This document shows, one piece after another, positions 21,294-31,804 of a stretch of DNA of 64,000 bases. Origin of the DNA: Candidatus Nitrososphaera gargensis Ga9.2. GTDB taxonomy: Archaea > Thermoproteota > Nitrososphaeria > Nitrososphaerales > Nitrososphaeraceae. The stretch spans positions 2,480,001 to 2,544,000 of the forward strand of contig NC_018719.1 in assembly GCF_000303155.1 (NCBI RefSeq), written 5' to 3'. The notes under the pieces are model-generated. The model saw nothing but the letters and a program-made list of their open reading frames with translations, did no database searches and was not told the origin of the DNA. How positions within the stretch are numbered: position 1 is the first letter of the stretch; every line of letters starts with the position of its first letter. The position numbers and the translations under genes were made by a program.

Positions 21294-21917
21294 ATGAGCT
21301 CAAATTCTGCTTTAGAGCGCACGATCAGCAAGGTTTTATCGCAGAAAGAAGCGGAACTGGTTTCAAAAATAGACTCTGCTTACCAAGAATCGCTAAACAA
21401 CCTTGAAGCTTCCCGTGGCAAGCTGGAGGCTGAGCGCACTAGGATAATTGGGTCGGCAAAAAAACAAGCCGAGAACCTGAAGCGCCAGATAATTGGGTCG
21501 GCAAGGCTTGCCGCCCGCAACCAAGAACTCGTCACAATTGAAAACGCCGTCAACAACGCGTTTGAAGAGGCAAGGAAAAAGCTTGCGGCCTCTGGCGGCA
21601 AGGACAGCTACAGGGCCCTCATGAGCAACATAATTGAAGAGAGCGTCTCGTCAGTAGGCTCTGGTGGGGTAGTAATTGAATGCAACAAAAACGACGCCGA
21701 GCTGGTCAGAAAGATAGTGGCCGACCTGCAGCAAAAGAACTCGAAGGTGCAGGCGAGGGTGTCCGAACAGCACATCGACGTGCTGGGAGGCATCAGGGTC
21801 AAGTCCGCCGACGGCACCATGACATTTGACAACACTCTTGATTCTCGAATTGAAAGACTCAAACCTTTAATAAGGAAAAACATAGCCCAGATGCTGAGAG
21901 GAGGAGAAGAGGCGTAA
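21294..21917 (+). CDS. atpE: A-type ATP synthase subunit E (peripheral stalk)
   Basis: The 207-residue protein has the subunit E design: a long N-terminal coiled coil (about residues 5-95, with [20 protein letters not shown]) and a C-terminal alpha/beta head ([24 protein letters not shown]). It forms the peripheral stalk that holds the A3B3 head against rotation. A box ggttaaaatcg at 21256-21266 lies about 30 nt before ATG 21294, so this begins the atp transcript. It is directly followed by atpA. Confidence 0.9.
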
Positions 21918-21918
21918 A

Positions 21919-23730
21919 ATGGTAGCAGTAGCAAAAGGGAGAATCGTCTGGGTTAGTGGCCCGGCAGTCAAGGCAGACGGCATGTCTGCAGCAAAGATGT
22001 ATGAAACGGTTGAGGTGGGCGAATCAAAGCTCATCGGCGAAGTCATCAGGCTGACTGGCGACGTTGCATTTATTCAGGTATACGAGTCGACGTCTGGGTT
22101 AAAGCCAGGCGAACCTGTGGTTGGCACCGGCCAGCCGTTATCGGTCCTTCTGGGTCCCGGAATCATTGGCAGGATCTACGACGGGATCCAGCGCCCGCTG
22201 GATGAGATCGCTGCAAAGTCCGGCGCCTTCATTGGAAGGGGCGTGGTCACGACCCCGGTGGACATGAAAAAGAAGTACAAGTTCAAGCCGGTCGCTAAAA
22301 AGGGCGACCAAGTTGGCCCCGGATCGATCCTTGGCACGGTGGAAGAGACCCCGCTGCTGACGCACAGCATCCTTGTCCCGCCAAACTCTCCAAGCGGCAA
22401 GCTGGTAGACATTGCAGGCGAGGGCGACTATGACATCGAGCATGTGATTGCCACTACAGAAAAGGGCGGCGAAAAAGTGTCATTAAAGATGTATCACAAG
22501 TGGCCCGTGCGCAAGCCGAGGCCCTACGCTGAGCGCTACGACCCGACAGTCCCACTTGTAACCGGCCAGCGCGTGATCGACACCTACTTCCCGATTGCAA
22601 AGGGAGGAACAGGAGCGATCCCCGGAGGCTTTGGCACAGGCAAGACGGTCACGCTGCACCAGATTGCCAAGTGGGCAGACAGCAAAGTGGTAGTATACAT
22701 TGGCTGCGGCGAACGCGGCAACGAGATGACCGAGGTGCTTGTCGAGTTCCCACACCTTATCGACCCGCGCTCTGGCAGGCCGCTGATGGAAAGAACTGTG
22801 CTTGTGGCTAACACGAGCAACATGCCAGTAGCTGCAAGAGAAGCGTCCATCTACACAGGCGTCACCATGGCAGAATACTACCGCGACATGGGCTATGACG
22901 TAGTGCTCGTAGCCGACTCGACCAGCAGGTGGGCAGAGGCGCTGCGCGAAATGTCTGGCCGTCTTGAAGAGATGCCGGCAGAAGAGGGCTACCCGTCATA
23001 CCTTGCGTCAAGGCTTGCGGAGTTTTACGAGCGCGCAGGCAGGGTAAAGGCACTTGGCTCGCCAAACAGGGCCGGTTCTGTCACGCTGGTAGGCGCAGTG
23101 TCGCCGTCAGGCGCTGACTTTACCGAGCCAGTCACAACACACACTATCAGGTTCATCAAGACCTTCTGGGCGCTTGACACCAGGCTTGCATATTCAAGAC
23201 ACTACCCGTCCATCAACTGGATGCAGTCATATTCTGGATACCTCGAAGACGTGAGCAAGTGGTGGAAGGAGAACGTCACTGGCGAATGGTACGACCTGAG
23301 GGCTGAATCGTATCACGTTTTGCAAAGAGAGGATACGCTGAAAGAGATCGTCAGGCTGCTCGGCCCTGAGGCGCTGCCAGACGAGGAAAAGCTGGTGCTC
23401 GAAGTGGCAAGGATGGTCAAGATAGGCATTCTGCAGCAGAACTCTTTTGACAAGGTGGACACATACTGCAGCCCGCAAAAGCAGGTCAAGCTTGTAAAGT
23501 TGATGGTCAAGTTCTATAGGGAAGCGCAAAAGGCGCTCAAGGCAGGCACCCCGCTTGCAGACATTAGGGCGATGCCGATAATCCCGGCTCTCCTGAAGGC
23601 CAAGTTCGAGATACCAGAAGAGCAGTTGAGCAAGCTGGACGACTTGGACAAGCAGATAGACGACCAGTTCAGAAAGGCTGTAGGTGGCGCGGCAGCAGTG
23701 GCAGCAGAGGAGGCGAAGGTAGTTGCCTGA
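21919..23730 (+). CDS. atpA: A-type ATP synthase catalytic subunit A
   Basis: This is the nucleotide-hydrolysing or -forming subunit of the rotary ATP synthase. The P-loop is GGFGTGKT at residues 236-243, followed by the catalytic [11 protein letters not shown] large non-homologous insertion at about residues 90-200 ([15 protein letters not shown]) is typical of archaeal A subunits. [13 protein letters not shown] and the C-terminal helical domain are present. Length (603 aa) is normal. ATG 21919 starts one nt after the atpE stop codon. The 3' end overlaps the TTG start of atpB by 8 nt. Confidence 0.95.
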
Positions 23731-25117
23731 AACAGCGGCTGGAGTAGAATACACAAAGGTCGCCGAGATCAAGGGCCCGCTGATGGTAATCGACGGCATC
23801 ACAAAGGCATCGTTTGACGAGCTGGTCGAGATCGAGACAGCAGACGGCGAGCGCAGGCTCGGCAAGGTCCTCGAAGTAGGCTTTGGCAAGGCCATTGTGC
23901 AGGTGTTTGAAGGCACCACCGGCCTTACAATCACTGGAACAAAGGCCAAGTTCTTGGGCAAGACGATGGAGATGCCAGTTTCGCAGGAGCTCTTGGGCAG
24001 AGTGTTTGATGGGCTTGGAAGGCCAAACGACGGCCTGCCAGACCCGATCGCTGACAAGTTCCTCGATGTCAACGGCGAGCCCATGAACCCGGAAAGGCGC
24101 GAATACCCGACATCGTTCATCCAGACAGGCGTATCAGTAATCGACGGCATGCTGACCCTTGTAAGGGGACAAAAGCTGCCGATCTTTTCCGGCTCTGGCA
24201 TGCCACACAACATCTTGGCGGCGCAGATAGCCAGACAGGCGACGGTAGTCGGGACAAAGGAAGACTTTGCGGTGGTGTTTGCAGCAATTGGCGTGCAGTA
24301 CTCTGAAGCACAGTATTTCAAGCGCAGCCTTGAAGAGTCTGGTGCGCTGAGGCGCTCGGTGCTGTTCCTCAACCTTGCAGACGATCCGGCGATCGAGAGG
24401 ATCATCACACCCAGAGTGGCTCTGACAGTAGCAGAATACTTGGCGTTTGACCTTGGAATGCATGTGCTTGCTATACTGACCGATATGACTAACTATGCCG
24501 AAGCGCTCCGTGAAATCAGCGCGGCGAGGGAAGAAGTGCCGGGCAGAAAGGGCTATCCGGGTTACCTCTACACCGACCTTGCAAACAACTACGAGCGCGC
24601 AGGCAGGATAAAGGGCAAGAACGGCAGCGTGACCCAGGTGCCAATTCTTTCGATGCCGGCAGACGACATCACTCATCCAATTCCAGACCTGACAGGCTAC
24701 ATCACCGAAGGCCAGATCGTGCTTGGGCGCGACCTGTTCAGAAAGGGCATCTACCCGCCGGTCAATGTGCTCATGTCGCTGTCAAGGCTCATGAAGGACG
24801 GAGTGGGCGAAGGTAAGACCAGATCAGACCACATGGAAGTCGGCAACCAGCTCTACGACGCTTATTCAAGGGCACAGGAAGTCAGGGCGCTTGCAGAAAT
24901 CGTCGGCAGGGCAGGGCTTACAGGCGTCGACCTGAAATACCTTGACGCTGGCGACATGTTCGAGCAGCACTTCCTAAAGCAGGCGCCAGATGAGAACAGG
25001 GCGCTTGATGAGACGCTCGGCAGGGCGTGGGACGTGCTGTCAAGCCTTCCAGAAGGCGAGCTGACCAAGATCAAGGAAAAGCACGTGAAGCAATACTACA
25101 AGGGCAGCAACAAGTAG
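23723..25117 (+). CDS. atpB: A-type ATP synthase regulatory subunit B
   Basis: The 464-residue protein matches the non-catalytic B subunit. It has an N-terminal beta barrel ([16 protein letters not shown]), [12 protein letters not shown] in place of the P-loop, and [15 protein letters not shown] and [14 protein letters not shown], which contact the nucleotide at the A-B interface. TTG 23723 lies within the last codons of atpA, so translation is coupled. It precedes atpD by 10 nt. Confidence 0.95.
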
Positions 25118-25127
25118 GGAAAAAGCA

Positions 25128-25796
25128 ATGTCGTTTGGAAGAAGGGTCACAGCAACAAAGATCGAGCTTATCAAGATAAGGCGCTCGATGCAGGTTGCCA
25201 AGATGGTGCACAAGATCCTCGACGACAAGCGCGAAGTGTTGCTCAAAAAGATAGACGAAATGATCGACGAGGCAAACAAGGCCAGAGAAGACATCTGGAC
25301 GCCGCTTGGGGAGATCTATTCCTCCGTGTACCAGGCGTACATGAGCCTTGGCACCTCCACCCTTGAATCGATATCCGACTCGACGCCTTCTGTCATGGAA
25401 GTCGATGTGAACGTAAGGCGCATCGTCGACGTCAAGATACCGACGCTCCAAGTCAAAACAAAAGAAGGCGGCCAAGCGCTTTCCTATGGCTTTGTCGAGA
25501 CCAACGCGTCCGTAGACAAGGCGGCCAAACTAATCAAGAACATGCTGCCAGGCATCTGCAAGGCGGCGGAATATGAAAACGCGATATTCAGCCTTGCAAA
25601 AGAGCTTGAGCGCACGCAAAAGCTGATCAACGCGCTGGAATACGTCATTATCCCGCAGTACCAGGACGCCATGGCATTCATCAAGGCCACGCTTGAAGAG
25701 CGCGAGCGCGAAGAATTCGTCAGGCTCAAGAAGGTTAAAGTAGTGCTTGATAAGAAGAAGGTGGCAGAAGCGGAGGCTACAGGATCAGCTACATGA
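25128..25796 (+). CDS. atpD: A-type ATP synthase central-stalk subunit D
   Basis: The long antiparallel coiled coil of subunit D is clear: an N-terminal helix VTATKIELIKIRRSMQVAK and a C-terminal helix with RTQKLINALEYVIIPQY, the conserved signature. It is the rotor axle inside the A3B3 head. A ggga sequence about 10 nt before ATG 25128 is a plausible ribosome binding site. The stop codon overlaps the ATG of a 43-codon ORF (ATGA), so the two are translationally coupled. Confidence 0.9.
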   Translation: MSFGRRVTATKIELIKIRRSMQVAKMVHKILDDKREVLLKKIDEMIDEANKAREDIWTPLGEIYSSVYQAYMSLGTSTLESISDSTPSVMEVDVNVRRIVDVKIPTLQVKTKEGGQALSYGFVETNASVDKAAKLIKNMLPGICKAAEYENAIFSLAKELERTQKLINALEYVIIPQYQDAMAFIKATLEEREREEFVRLKKVKVVLDKKKVAEAEATGSAT

Positions 25797-25924
25797 CATC
25801 AGACGCGATTTCGGACTATTTTGTAAAGGCCAAGGCCCAGCTCAAGGCCGAGCGCGATTCAATGGCCCAAGAGATCAAGGAGAGCATCGCCGCCAGCAAG
25901 CGCAAGGCGATGTCAAAGGCCTAA
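25793..25924 (+). CDS. 43-residue helical protein coupled to atpD, unknown subunit
   Basis: The ATG overlaps the atpD stop codon. The product begins MTSDAISDYFVKAKAQLK and ends SKRKAMSKA; it is a single charged amphipathic helix with heptad-like spacing. No subunit F or H gene is seen anywhere in the operon, where it would be expected near D. This ORF is far shorter than F (about 100 aa) and shorter than H. Its position suggests a stalk-associated peptide, which is inference. A T-rich stretch follows at 25927-25945. Confidence 0.65.
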   Translation: MTSDAISDYFVKAKAQLKAERDSMAQEIKESIAASKRKAMSKA

Positions 25925-25945: not shown

Positions 25946-26012
25946 ATTTATCACTTCCCTCCGTGTAGTTACTATTAAATAGGGCTTAGAATGTCGGAAC
26001 TTTGATAGATAT

Positions 26013-26336
26013 ATGCAACGAAAGGTAGCAAGTCTTTTAACGGTTCTCGCAGCAGTTGCATTTGCAGGCTTTATGACAACAGAAGCCGCGTTTGCGCAGG
26101 AAGGCGGCGAAGGCGCGGCGGCTACACCTGATTCATTCAAGTTTATTGCAGCAGGCATGGCGTTCGGTCTGGCAGCGCTTGGAGCAGGCTTTGGCCTTGG
26201 CTTTGTGGGTGCTGCAGGTCTGGCAGCAATCAGCGAAAACCCCAAGATGCAGTCAAGCGTCTTTATTATCGTAGGTATGGTCGAGTCAATCGCCATCTAT
26301 GGCATAGTCATGATGTTCATCATCTTGGGCCAGTAA
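26013..26336 (+). CDS. atpK: A-type ATP synthase proteolipid subunit K (c-ring) with signal peptide
   Basis: The protein has a cleavable-looking N-terminal signal (VASLLTVLAAVAFAGF then EAAFAQ, cut near residue 29), followed by a two-helix c-subunit hairpin. The ion-binding carboxylate is Glu91 in the second helix (VGMVESIAIYG), and glycine-rich packing is seen in GLAALGAGFGLGFVGAAG. There is one hairpin, so it is the simple form. A box ctattaaatag centred near 25977 gives it its own promoter. A hairpin with T6 follows at 26354-26369. Confidence 0.9.
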   Translation: MQRKVASLLTVLAAVAFAGFMTTEAAFAQEGGEGAAATPDSFKFIAAGMAFGLAALGAGFGLGFVGAAGLAAISENPKMQSSVFIIVGMVESIAIYGIVMMFIILGQ

Positions 26337-26456: not shown

Positions 26457-28583
26457 ATGGGGCTAGCCAAACTTATGAAGGCCACCATCGTCCTGCCAAG
26501 GATGGAGACACAGGAGGCCGTGAGCAGGCTGGCTGCGCTGGAGTGGTTCCACCCGATCCAGAATACTGCTTCTGAACACATTAACCCGTATTACGACGAC
26601 CTTTTGACAAAGGCGCAAAGGCTGTACCAAGACATTGACGAAGTGGTCAAGGCACTCGGCATACCGCCGGAGACAGGCGTGCTTGCGACCATGTTCAAGG
26701 GCGCTCCAAAGGGCAAGCACGATTATGCCGCCGAAAACATACAGGGCTTCATCGCCGACCTTGAAGAAAAGAGCGCCAAGTTGCTGGAAGGTCCAAGAAA
26801 GGTGCTCGAAGAGCGCAACAGGGTGCAGAGGGAGCTCGAAGAGTACAGCAACCTAGAGGCTCTAGTGTCAAATGCCGCAAACCTGAGCCTGAACCTTGCC
26901 GCGTTTGGCAAGCTTGTCAACTTTTTTGCCAACCTTTTTGTCATTGACGCCAAGGACGAGGCAGAGATCAGAAAAAGCCTTGACGACCTTGCCATCTTTT
27001 CCACCAAGCTGAACGAGAACAAGACGTCGCTTGTCATCATTGGCTCTGCAGAGGACTCGGAGCGGGTGCTTAAGGTGCTCAGGAGCTTTGGCGTCAACCC
27101 GCTGCAGATCCCGGCAGACATGCCCCAGAACCCGAGCGAAGCGTACGCGATTGCAAAGGCAAAGGTCAAGGAGCTTGAAGCCAAGGCAGAGCAGATGGAC
27201 AAGGAGGTCGAAAAGGTCAAGCAGTCGATCCTGACGCAGTTGCTGTCTCTGCAGGAGGCTGCGAGAGTCGCCAAGGACGTCTTGGAAATTACAAGGAAGC
27301 CGGGCGGCACCAAGAACTTTGCAGTCATTGAAGGCTATATCCCCCAAGAGATGGAGGACAGATTCAAAAAGCTCACCTCTGATTATGTTTCGATAATCGA
27401 AGATGCCAACCTGACAGTAAACAGCCACGAGGGCGAACACAGCTCAGAACCTCTACCGTCGCTCCTGACCAACAAGAAATACATGCACAACTTCCAGGTC
27501 ATTACTGAGACTCAAGGTCTGCCGAGGTACGGCGAAGTCGACCCGACGCCGATAATTGCATTTGTCTGGCCGATATTCTACGGGCTGATGTTTGCAGACT
27601 TTGGCCACGGCCTCTTGCTCTTTGGCCTGGGTATGCTGTTCCGCTACAGGGGCAACGGCAGGCTCAAGGTGTGGGGAACACTCATTGCCGCAAGCGGCCT
27701 GGCAGCTACAGTCGGCGGCCTTGGCACGGGAGAGATGTTTGGGTTCCACTTTGATCATATCTCATTCCTAGAGCCTCTGGCCCACGCGCTGCCAGTTGTA
27801 GGCCTGCTGAGCGTGTCAGAGCTGACATTCGAAGAGGTAGTCAAGATACTAGAGGTGTCCATAGCAGTAGGCATTATCCACCTGCTGATGGCGTTCTTCC
27901 TCAGGCTGAGGGCCAACCTGAAGCAGGGCAACAAGATTATGGTCTACACCCACGATGTACCAGCGATCATACAGTACTTGGCAGTGGTCTCGCTGATACT
28001 GGCAGCCATTGGCTCCCAGTACGACATTATTGGAATGTTCCTGAGCGACAACTACTACGAGACGCCGGTGCCATGGCTGACGTTCGTATTTGGAAGCTGG
28101 GTCTCAGTGGGCTTGGTGGCAAAGGCGATGCCTCCTGTCATCATTGCCTGCATTGTCATAACTATACTGGGCGGCATGAAGGAGCAAAAGCACGCGCTGG
28201 CACACGGCAAAGAGCCAGAAGGCGGAGGGCTTGTGGGCATCGTGGTAGAAACGGTCATGGTAAGGACAATCGAAATGCTCGCCAACACTATCAGCTACTC
28301 CCGGCTTGGCATTATGCTCCTTGTCCACACGGCGCTTCTGGTAACGGTCATCAACTCGTACGAGCACGGAGGAGGGCTTGCCATACTAATCGGCGGCAAC
28401 ATTGGCATCATGATGATAGAGGGCCTGATCGTCTACATCCAAACAATCAGGTTGCACCTGTACGAATGGTTCCCCAAGTGGTACAAGTCCGATGGCGTCC
28501 AGTTCAAGAAGCTGGTGCCCCAGATGCTCTACACAAATCTGGTCTGGAAGTACGACGACGGCAAGAAAAAGGTCTCAGCCTAG
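26457..28583 (+). CDS. atpI: A-type ATP synthase membrane subunit I (a)
   Basis: The N-terminal cytoplasmic half (about residues 1-350) has long coiled coils that bind the peripheral stalk. The C-terminal half has about seven or eight membrane helices, starting at PTPIIAFVWPIFYGLMFADFG. The helix with the essential arginine is in ISYSRLGIMLLVHTALL. It forms the proton half-channels against the K ring. Length (708 aa) is normal. It is convergent with atpC, 34 nt apart. Confidence 0.95.
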   Translation: MGLAKLMKATIVLPRMETQEAVSRLAALEWFHPIQNTASEHINPYYDDLLTKAQRLYQDIDEVVKALGIPPETGVLATMFKGAPKGKHDYAAENIQGFIADLEEKSAKLLEGPRKVLEERNRVQRELEEYSNLEALVSNAANLSLNLAAFGKLVNFFANLFVIDAKDEAEIRKSLDDLAIFSTKLNENKTSLVIIGSAEDSERVLKVLRSFGVNPLQIPADMPQNPSEAYAIAKAKVKELEAKAEQMDKEVEKVKQSILTQLLSLQEAARVAKDVLEITRKPGGTKNFAVIEGYIPQEMEDRFKKLTSDYVSIIEDANLTVNSHEGEHSSEPLPSLLTNKKYMHNFQVITETQGLPRYGEVDPTPIIAFVWPIFYGLMFADFGHGLLLFGLGMLFRYRGNGRLKVWGTLIAASGLAATVGGLGTGEMFGFHFDHISFLEPLAHALPVVGLLSVSELTFEEVVKILEVSIAVGIIHLLMAFFLRLRANLKQGNKIMVYTHDVPAIIQYLAVVSLILAAIGSQYDIIGMFLSDNYYETPVPWLTFVFGSWVSVGLVAKAMPPVIIACIVITILGGMKEQKHALAHGKEPEGGGLVGIVVETVMVRTIEMLANTISYSRLGIMLLVHTALLVTVINSYEHGGGLAILIGGNIGIMMIEGLIVYIQTIRLHLYEWFPKWYKSDGVQFKKLVPQMLYTNLVWKYDDGKKKVSA

Positions 28584-28617: not shown

Positions 28618-29673
28618 TTACTCTACGCGCACAAGGCTTGCCAGTATCTTGTCTGAAGGTATCTTTTGCTCGACGCCTGCAGCAATAGCCGCAAGGTTCC
28701 TTATTTCAAAAGCCATCAGCTTGATAGACGCAAGCAGATTTGCGACCGTAAAGACGGTGCGGAACGAGTTCATTATGCGCTTGAGTGACTCTTTTTCAAA
28801 TGCGACCTCTAGCTGCATGATGGCGTCAATGTCGTTTGCGGCGCTTCTTGGGATAAGCTCCTTGTACGCAGTGCCTGCAAGCTCGCCTATTGCTTCTTGG
28901 ATCTTTTCGGTGTTTATCATCCTCTGGAGCACGTCTCTTGAAACCTTGCCCGTAGTGACTATCAGGTCGTTCACTTCGTTTGCGCTCAGGCCCCAGAACT
29001 TGCCGCGGAGAACAGCAAGAACATTGTATGAATCGACGTCAACGCCGGCGACCTTGTTCGTGTCCTGCAGCTTTGACTCAAAGACAACAGCCCTATCAAG
29101 CGACTTGTAGAATGCGTGGTCTAGAAAAGTGTCAAAGACCCTGACGTCGCCCTTTTCCTTGTAGGCCTGTGCGGCTTTTCGCGCGTCTTCTCCAAATTCG
29201 CTTCCTGCAAGCGAGTTGACTGCCTCATCAAAATCCTTAGCGACAAGCGCCTTGACCACCAAGTCCCTGCGGCCTACCAGCTCCTCTGCCCTCAGGTTGA
29301 CCTTTGGCAGCAGCTCCTCGTACGTCCTGCCCATCGCCTTGCCCTTTAGGATTATCTTCAGGTTCCAAGTGATGTATTTTACGAAATAAGCGCTGAGGAT
29401 CGCAGAGCCGTTTGCAATGTTGACTATTTTTGCGTGCTGGTTCACAAGGTGCTCACGCAGAGCCGATTCGACTTTTTCCGCAGTATACGGCTTGGTAAGC
29501 TTGGCAAGCGCGTCAAGGTAAACGGTATTTTTCATTCTGGTAACAAGCTCGTCAATGTCTCTGGATTCTGCCAGAGTCTGGAGCTCGGTCTTGGAAAGCA
29601 TCTTGCCCCGAAGGCTGTGGGCAAGGACGGTGCCGAAAATCTTGTTTGGCATGCTAACCTTGTTGGTATTCAA
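28618..29673 (-). CDS. atpC: A-type ATP synthase subunit C (central stalk socket)
   Basis: The helical three-fold repeat protein of the V/A ATPase C (d) family is recognisable from VDVDSYNVLAVLRGKFWGL and ALREHLVNQHAKIV. It couples the central stalk to the c ring. Unusually, it lies on the opposite strand, convergent with atpI. A box tttataaa at about 29697-29704 predicts a transcript start near 29674, exactly at the TTG start; ATG 29652 (MPNKIFGTV) is the alternative. Confidence 0.85.
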   Translation of the reverse strand: MNTNKVSMPNKIFGTVLAHSLRGKMLSKTELQTLAESRDIDELVTRMKNTVYLDALAKLTKPYTAEKVESALREHLVNQHAKIVNIANGSAILSAYFVKYITWNLKIILKGKAMGRTYEELLPKVNLRAEELVGRRDLVVKALVAKDFDEAVNSLAGSEFGEDARKAAQAYKEKGDVRVFDTFLDHAFYKSLDRAVVFESKLQDTNKVAGVDVDSYNVLAVLRGKFWGLSANEVNDLIVTTGKVSRDVLQRMINTEKIQEAIGELAGTAYKELIPRSAANDIDAIMQLEVAFEKESLKRIMNSFRTVFTVANLLASIKLMAFEIRNLAAIAAGVEQKIPSDKILASLVRVE

Positions 29674-30748: not shown

Positions 30749-31804
30749 TTATCGAATCACAAAAAGTCGTTCGATTTTCGCACTGGAACCCGACAGTGCT
30801 GTCAGAGAAGATAACTTCCCTAACCTCTTTGCTAGGTTAAAAGCTCCGTTATAGTCGACGTTGCACTGGTAGCCGCATGCATGGCACACGAACAGCCCTT
30901 GGTGTGGTCGCAAAGTGTTGTCACTTCCGCACCTGTGGCAGAGCTTGCTGCTATACCATTCCCTCGTCGTCAGCACTGGTGTTCCTTCCCAGTTTGCCTT
31001 ATACGCGATATACTTTGTCAGCCGATAGAATGGCATGCTTGCAATGATCCTGTTGAATCGTCTGCTTCTTGTTCTATTTCTGATTCCAGATAGGTCGCCC
31101 AGTAGTATGACAGCATTGTTCTCCTTTGCCACGTCATCTATCTGGCGACTGATTTTGTGAAGAATGTCGTTTACCTTTCTTTGCTCTCTATTGCTGACCT
31201 TGCGTACCATTCTCAGGAGCTTCTTTTTACCTAGCTTTTTGCGCAAGTACGCGTATTTGCGCCTCAATCCTCTTACGTTTCTGCCCATGAATATAGGCTT
31301 ACTTTGGTTAGAAGTAAAGGAGTTTGCAAACAGCACAGCAGTCGCAATATTCCTTTCACCCATGTCCACAGCAAGTATCGAAGAGGGATGAGCATTATCA
31401 AATGAAACTTCTTTTGAAATGGTCAAGTACAATTCATAGTGACCATCTCTTTTCAATAGCTTGGAGTCATGAATATTGCCTTCGATATATTGTTTTGTTT
31501 TTATTGGGCACCATATTCGCAACCTTGGCTTGACAGTAATAGCAACAAAGTATGGCATTTTGTTATCCGTTTTTATGACTTTGAACATTCTCTGAGTATC
31601 AAGATATACTGGGTCGTTTGGTTCTGCTATTGAAGCATGAGATGCATACTTTGAATATACTTCTGGATGCATCTTGCGGTTCCCACTATAAGGCTTCTTG
31701 ACTTTGATCATATCTTGCCATGCAGAACAAACTTCATCCAATAATGCATGCTTTCTCTTTGTTAACTGAGAGAGGCAGCATGTTATAGTTTTCTGTACTT
31801 CCAG
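30749..31804 (-). mobile_element. tnpB: TnpB (RNA-guided RuvC nuclease family) of a TnpB-only element
   Basis: The RuvC core is present: VDMGERNIATAV (RuvC-I Asp) and NVDYNGAFNLAKR (RuvC-III Asp), with a zinc finger between them (CHRCG and CHACG). In the RuvC-II motif the usual Glu of 'EDL' is Gly (ILLGDLSGIR); a Glu occurs at YKANWEGTP and could serve instead. The ATG-started frame begins at 31741, but homologous sequence (VQKTITCCLSQL) continues up to 31804, where the only start-like codon is CTG after TGA. No TnpA is nearby. TnpB cuts DNA using a right-end guide RNA; this copy may be altered or inactive. Confidence 0.8.

What the first reader, a model, noticed from the sequence alone, without database searches (positions are those of the whole stretch)
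25793..25924. Unassigned 43-residue ORF coupled to atpD where a stalk subunit is expected
It overlaps the atpD stop codon and encodes one charged helix. No F or H subunit gene is seen in the operon. It could be a reduced stalk component specific to this lineage.
Basis: partly seen in the sequence, partly recalled or inferred. Interest (0 to 1): 0.6.

Follow-up and report, generated by a model that had tools for sequence, protein, structure and literature searches.

The report
Conserved mini-gene of archaeal ATP synthase
A 43-residue gene that shares its start with the end of the ATP-synthase gene atpD is a real, conserved protein gene found in every sampled relative with an A-type ATP synthase and in none with only a V-type one; it is probably a small extra part of the enzyme, not a shrunken stalk subunit, because the true F and H stalk genes lie elsewhere in the genome.

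Summary
The ORF is real: ATG at 25793 shares ATGA with the atpD stop and encodes 43 residues ending at 25924. It forms one amphipathic helix and is under purifying selection (pN/pS 0.30; atpD 0.12). In class Nitrososphaeria, 177 of 190 genomes with an A-type atpD carry it by profile search, and the other 13 carry a divergent copy right after atpD. None of 89 V-type-only genomes has it, and the contrast repeats within six genera. In two lineages it has moved away from atpD but is retained, so it acts as a protein in trans. The "missing F/H" reasoning fails genome-wide. atpF lies at 1.28 Mb. A 145-residue H homolog lies at 2.74 Mb next to the NAC gene and is conserved in A-type relatives. The ORF therefore does not replace a stalk subunit. 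Its closest counterpart is the Sulfolobus ATPase epsilon chain (Pfam PF08112), which has the same place (B-D-epsilon-K), size and helical nature. Profile similarity is modest (hhalign 88%; shuffled and E/H controls lower), and the Pfam model itself does not match. Best reading: a dedicated small A-type ATP-synthase subunit or partner, probably packing on A1/stalk helices. Its exact site and function are not shown.

The parts
25793..25924 (+). Small ORF, 43 aa (MTSDAISDYFVKAKAQLKAERDSMAQEIKESIAASKRKAMSKA): proposed small (epsilon-like) subunit of the A-type ATP synthase
25793..25796 (+). ATGA stop/start overlap with atpD (translational coupling inferred)
25128..25796 (+). atpD (subunit D, central rotor), PF01813 E=2.9e-55; its A-type class predicts presence of the small ORF
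21294..21917 (+). atpE (peripheral-stalk subunit E), PF01991
21919..23730 (+). atpA (catalytic subunit A)
23723..25117 (+). atpB (subunit B)
25968..25992 (+). TATA/BRE-like element (TTACTATTAAATAGGG) between the small ORF and atpK, recurring in several congeners; suggests that the small ORF closes the E-A-B-D transcript and that atpK has its own promoter (inferred)
26013..26336 (+). atpK (c-ring subunit), PF00137
26457..28583 (+). atpI (subunit a/I), PF01496
28618..29673 (-). atpC (AC39 subunit C), PF01992, convergent

Best explanation
The ORF encodes a dedicated small subunit or tightly associated partner of the A-type ATP synthase, the Nitrososphaeria counterpart of the Sulfolobus ATPase epsilon chain. 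It is made by translational coupling from the end of atpD. The 43-residue product is one amphipathic helix with a single hydrophobic face, which needs a helical partner; the most likely site is the A1 sector, on the coiled coil of rotor subunit D or beside stator subunit E. There it would stabilise or assemble A1, or damp futile ATP hydrolysis. Shown: gene, conservation, helix prediction, strict link to A-type enzymes, retention in trans, presence of a separate H and F. Inferred: homology to epsilon, physical membership in the complex, binding site, biochemical role.
For: 177/190 A-type genomes carry it by profile and the remaining 13 have a divergent version right after D, versus 0/89 V-type-only genomes. 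Six genera that contain both enzyme types show the same contrast. 105/105 pairs are directly adjacent, and 75 of 80 independent named loci have it. It is retained after relocation in g3 (G019, G030) and g11 (G027), so it is not a cis leader. It is under purifying selection with a 100-degree amphipathic period, and AlphaFold2 predicts one helix for this segment, pLDDT about 60-88. Sulfolobales PF08112 epsilon has the same slot B-D-epsilon-K, 47-59 aa, start near or inside the end of D. hhalign with epsilon gives 88% (score 29.3), against a column-shuffle maximum of 18.0 and 15.2 reversed. Similar ORFs fill the slot in other Thermoproteota families.
Against: No protein, transcript or complex data were available. 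PF08112 does not match any Nitrososphaeria genome listed nor any member of the alignment among the 25 families shown. Pairwise profile identity is only 6% over 35 columns, and coiled-coil families give spurious profile scores (epsilon versus E: 80%). Gene linkage does not prove complex membership. The predicted structure was of an artificial D-ORF read-through and gives no reliable contacts.
Confidence: 0.72

Rival explanations
1. Reduced peripheral-stalk subunit (shortened H, or a remnant of F) that replaces the missing canonical gene: the first reader's reading.
For: In V-type operons of the same family a canonical H lies just downstream of D, with a short TM ORF between, so the position is H-like. 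The product is a charged helix.
Against: A full H homolog exists in the same genome (NF006256 E=5e-12) and in the A-type relatives, beside NAC. F exists. Deep lineages carry H and the ORF together. Profile similarity to H is negligible.
Confidence: 0.06
2. An extra stalk-associated helix, a third component binding E/H or C in addition to a normal E-H pair, in the way that mitochondrial stalks have extra small subunits.
For: Amphipathic helix; an intact E-H set exists for it to bind.
Against: Coupled to D, not to E or H; profile similarity to E is weak (17.7%). No contact data.
Confidence: 0.25
3. A helical inhibitor or unidirectional brake, analogous in action (not in descent) to mitochondrial IF1 or the C-terminal helix of F-type epsilon, stopping ATP hydrolysis when the proton-motive force falls.
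For: Size and single amphipathic helix; present only with the A-type enzyme and absent with the V-type-like one, for which Wang et al. (PMC6863869) argue ATP-driven proton pumping.
Against: No direct evidence; no sequence match to IF1 or to other inhibitor families. Tight coupling to D suggests a stoichiometric rather than a regulated protein.
Confidence: 0.25
4. Leader peptide or translational spacer acting in cis on atpK expression.
For: It lies between atpD and the c-subunit gene atpK, which is needed in many copies per complex (general knowledge).
Against: Relocated copies are retained away from the operon. Selection is on the amino-acid sequence. A promoter-like element separates it from atpK.
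Confidence: 0.02

Closest known systems
Sulfolobus membrane-associated ATPase epsilon chain (Pfam PF08112, ATP-synt_E_2)
   Same: Same operon slot (B-D-epsilon-K), start close to or inside the end of D, 47-59 aa single charged helix, A-type enzyme; modest profile similarity.
   Different: PF08112 does not hit the Nitrososphaeria sequences; the products here are 41-48 aa in most, with a different consensus. Epsilon itself is only tentatively a subunit (from memory of its UniProt note) and has no solved structure.
Archaeal subunit H (AhaH, TIGR02926; NF006256)
   Same: Helical, charged; in V-type thaumarchaeal operons H also follows D.
   Different: H is about 100-145 aa and is separately encoded here beside NAC; no profile similarity to the ORF.
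Single-TM ORF after atpD in V-type-like thaumarchaeal operons (L041, L042, L043, L045)
   Same: Same position and size.
   Different: Hydrophobic, single transmembrane segment; unrelated sequence.
Mitochondrial IF1 / F-type epsilon C-terminal helix
   Same: Small amphipathic helix; possible inhibitory action (analogy only).
   Different: No homology detected; different enzyme class.

Membership tests
Sulfolobus ATPase epsilon (PF08112) | Matches the curated Pfam model above its cut-off | tested here: not met
   No match in G000 or in the listed Nitrososphaeria genomes; no PF08112 among families matched by A1 members.
Sulfolobus ATPase epsilon (PF08112) | Gene sits between atpD and atpK in an A-type operon | tested here: met
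Sulfolobus ATPase epsilon (PF08112) | About 50-60 aa single helix without TM segment | tested here: met
   43 aa here, 41-57 aa in the family; helix by periodicity and AF2.
Sulfolobus ATPase epsilon (PF08112) | Profile-level homology | tested here: inconclusive
   hhalign 88%, score 29.3 versus shuffled maximum 18.0 and 15.2 reversed, but 6% identity and a helical-family false-positive risk (epsilon-E 80%).
Archaeal subunit H (AhaH) | About 85-100 residue coiled coil matching TIGR02926 / NF006256 | tested here: not met
   No family match for the 43-mer; hhalign to the H family 5.8%.
Archaeal subunit H (AhaH) | No other H in the genome (if the ORF were the H) | tested here: not met
   145-aa H homolog at G000:C1:2742413-2742850.
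Archaeal subunit F | Matches PF01990; no other F in the genome | tested here: not met
   F is at G000:C1:1282735-1283031, 98 aa; the ORF does not match.
A-type ATP synthase subunit (general) | Phyletic and positional link to the A-type enzyme | tested here: met
A-type ATP synthase subunit (general) | Physical presence in the purified complex | not testable with these tools
   Needs mass spectrometry or cryo-EM.

The most novel reading that the evidence does not exclude
A hitherto unrecognised tenth subunit of the A-type ATP synthase, universal in ammonia-oxidising archaea and their deep relatives and shared with Sulfolobales and other Thermoproteota. It would be a 40-60 residue amphipathic helix that binds the D rotor or the A3B3 head and acts as a hydrolysis brake or assembly clamp, and it is exchanged together with the whole enzyme when a lineage switches to the V-type-like ATPase.
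Probability: 0.3. Interest if true: 0.8.

Novelty: new variant of a known kind. Interest (0 to 1): 0.6.

Why it matters
Ammonia-oxidising archaea live on very little energy and depend on this enzyme. Wang et al. 2019 (PMC6863869) counted only eight of nine subunits in their A-type enzyme and reported no clear homolog of H. This analysis identifies an unlinked, NAC-adjacent H homolog, and an additional tiny gene tied to the A-type enzyme in all 190 A-type genomes sampled. It links that gene to the poorly understood Sulfolobus epsilon chain, and it makes both directly testable by proteomics and cryo-EM in cultured species.

Tried and rejected
Pfam, NCBIfam and PDB searches with the 43-mer and with its profile gave no meaningful match. 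A reduced H or F was rejected because real H and F exist. A leader peptide was rejected because of the relocated copies. The 13 apparent A-type exceptions were inspected one by one and all have a divergent ORF. AlphaFold2 on a read-through D-ORF sequence confirmed one helix but gave pTM 0.42 and no usable contacts. Literature searches for the Sulfolobus epsilon chain found nothing held. The second folding job and the fold searches were not used, because single helices give uninformative matches.

Full report
Observation. In the window the ATP-synthase genes run atpE (21294-21917), atpA (21919-23730), atpB (23723-25117), atpD (25128-25796), the small ORF (25793-25924), atpK (26013-26336) and atpI (26457-28583), with atpC convergent on the other strand (28618-29673). 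The ORF starts on the ATG of an ATGA that contains the TGA stop of atpD, and encodes MTSDAISDYFVKAKAQLKAERDSMAQEIKESIAASKRKAMSKA.

Is it a gene? Yes. In the close relatives with readable downstream sequence, an ORF of 41-48 aa starts on the atpD stop, by ATGA or GTGA. Over 15 close relatives pooled pN/pS is 0.30 (atpD 0.12), variable columns fall as 30/25/40 of 42 at codon positions 1/2/3, and the family's mean hydrophobicity peaks sharply at 100 degrees per residue, the signature of one amphipathic helix. AlphaFold2 on a natural in-frame read-through of atpD and the ORF from a relative predicts a single helix for the ORF (residues 220-265, pLDDT about 60-88), but with pTM 0.42 its placement says nothing.

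Where does it occur? A profile of 32 members (A1) searched in six frames finds it in 180 of 296 class genomes at E<=1e-4. The same genomes were typed by their atpD: 190 have an A-type D and 89 only a divergent, V-type-like D. 177 of the 190 have the ORF and 0 of the 89 do. The 13 exceptions were opened: each has a divergent 41-57 aa charged ORF immediately after D, so the link is effectively 190 of 190. Fisher's exact p is 2e-59, but genomes are not independent. More telling, six genera contain both kinds of genome (g2, g12, g21, g43, g51, g56) and in each the ORF follows the A-type D. In 105 of 105 listed pairs the ORF is on the same strand directly after D, with a median distance of 2 nt. 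In an independent retrieval of 80 named loci, 75 have it; of the rest, one contig ends, one has a gap and three belong to lineages where it is not after D. In genus g3 (G019, G030) and in G027 it has left the operon and sits elsewhere, but is kept. A cis-acting leader would not behave so.

The missing F and H. The operon indeed lacks both, but the genome does not. atpF is at G000:C1:1282735-1283031 (98 aa; PF01990 7e-16) and F is found in nearly all relatives. A 145-aa coiled-coil protein at G000:C1:2742413-2742850 matches NCBIfam NF006256, subunit H, at 5e-12 over positions 18-102 of 103, and AhaH at 2e-5, both below the strict curated cut-offs. Its orthologs are in 41 of 61 relatives. None was found in the 11 V-type-only genomes G018, G020, G023, G024, G028, G029, G032, G036, G043, G048 and G059; G042 and G056 have only weak in-operon hits. 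It keeps a NAC - H - (YqgF-like) neighbourhood across families. Wang et al. 2019 stated that no clear homolog of subunit H had been reported for the A-type enzyme (PMC6863869); a later N. viennensis paper lists a 'putative ATPase subunit H', NVIE_018270, without further detail in the text read (PMC7785015), and I could not check whether it is the same gene. Deep relatives have H, F and the small ORF together. So the ORF is an addition, not a replacement.

What is it like? In Sulfolobales the slot between atpD and atpK holds the ATPase epsilon chain (PF08112), 47-59 aa, a charged helix starting close to or inside the end of D. Comparable 36-58 aa charged ORFs follow D in several other Thermoproteota families, while others have none. 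Profile comparison of the Nitrososphaeria family with epsilon gives 88% probability (score 29.3; best of 40 column shuffles 18.0; reversed 15.2), against 5.8% with H and 17.7% with E. Against other Thermoproteota ORFs it gives 93.9%, but one column shuffle there scored anomalously high (131.8) and the reversed profile gave 59%, so that comparison is weaker. Identity with epsilon is 6%, epsilon versus E gives 80%, and the PF08112 model does not hit these proteins. I therefore call it a positional and probable evolutionary counterpart of epsilon, not a proven member of PF08112. From memory, UniProt lists epsilon of Sulfolobus only as a possible subunit; no solved structure contains it. Weak H-like candidates also occur in some Sulfolobales.

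Mechanism. Shown: a translated-looking, selected, A-type-specific, trans-acting one-helix protein. Inferred: it is made in fixed ratio with D by stop-start coupling, and its hydrophobic face packs on a helical partner in A1, most likely the D coiled coil or the E-containing stalk. Whether it stabilises, helps assembly or restrains hydrolysis is open; I give roughly equal weight (about 0.25 each) to a stalk-associated helix and to an inhibitor, and the rest to a structural or assembly role at the rotor. These sub-readings overlap with the best explanation (a dedicated small subunit or partner) and are not added to it.

Verdict. The interpretation as a reduced stalk subunit in place of F or H is not supported. 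The most useful outputs are the A-type-linked mini-gene and the NAC-linked H candidate.

Noticed in passing
L040:1414-1851 (-), i.e. G000:C1:2742413-2742850: Full-length subunit H homolog of the A-type ATP synthase, encoded far from the operon between NAC and a YqgF-like gene; neighbourhood conserved across families.
   Followed up: yes
L001:1495-1791 (+), i.e. G000:C1:1282735-1283031: Stand-alone atpF, away from the operon in the own genome and in related ammonia oxidisers; in deeper relatives it sits in front of atpE.
   Followed up: partly
L041, L042, L043, L045 (directly after atpD): V-type-like thaumarchaeal operons carry an unrelated 39-52 aa single-transmembrane ORF right after atpD; in L041, L042 and L045 a canonical H follows it. 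Possibly a small membrane subunit of that enzyme.
   Followed up: no
L093:2475-2732 (-), i.e. near G000:C1:386016: A second, 85-aa ORF in the own genome contains a diverged copy of the small-ORF domain (E=6.7e-7).
   Followed up: no
L095:423-1709 (-), genome G054: A copy of the small ORF appears fused to the N-terminus of a NuoD-like complex I subunit, inside an apparent nuoABCD cluster.
   Followed up: no
L090:2406-2552 (-), L091:429-575 (+), L092:822-1022 (+): Relocated copies of the small ORF, unlinked to the ATPase operon; in L090 and L091 next to a probable NAD(P)H-hydrate epimerase and metallo-beta-lactamase gene pair.
   Followed up: partly
window 30749-31741 (-): ORF with a C-terminal zinc-finger pattern typical of TnpB/OrfB-type transposon proteins, downstream of the ATPase cluster.
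   Followed up: no
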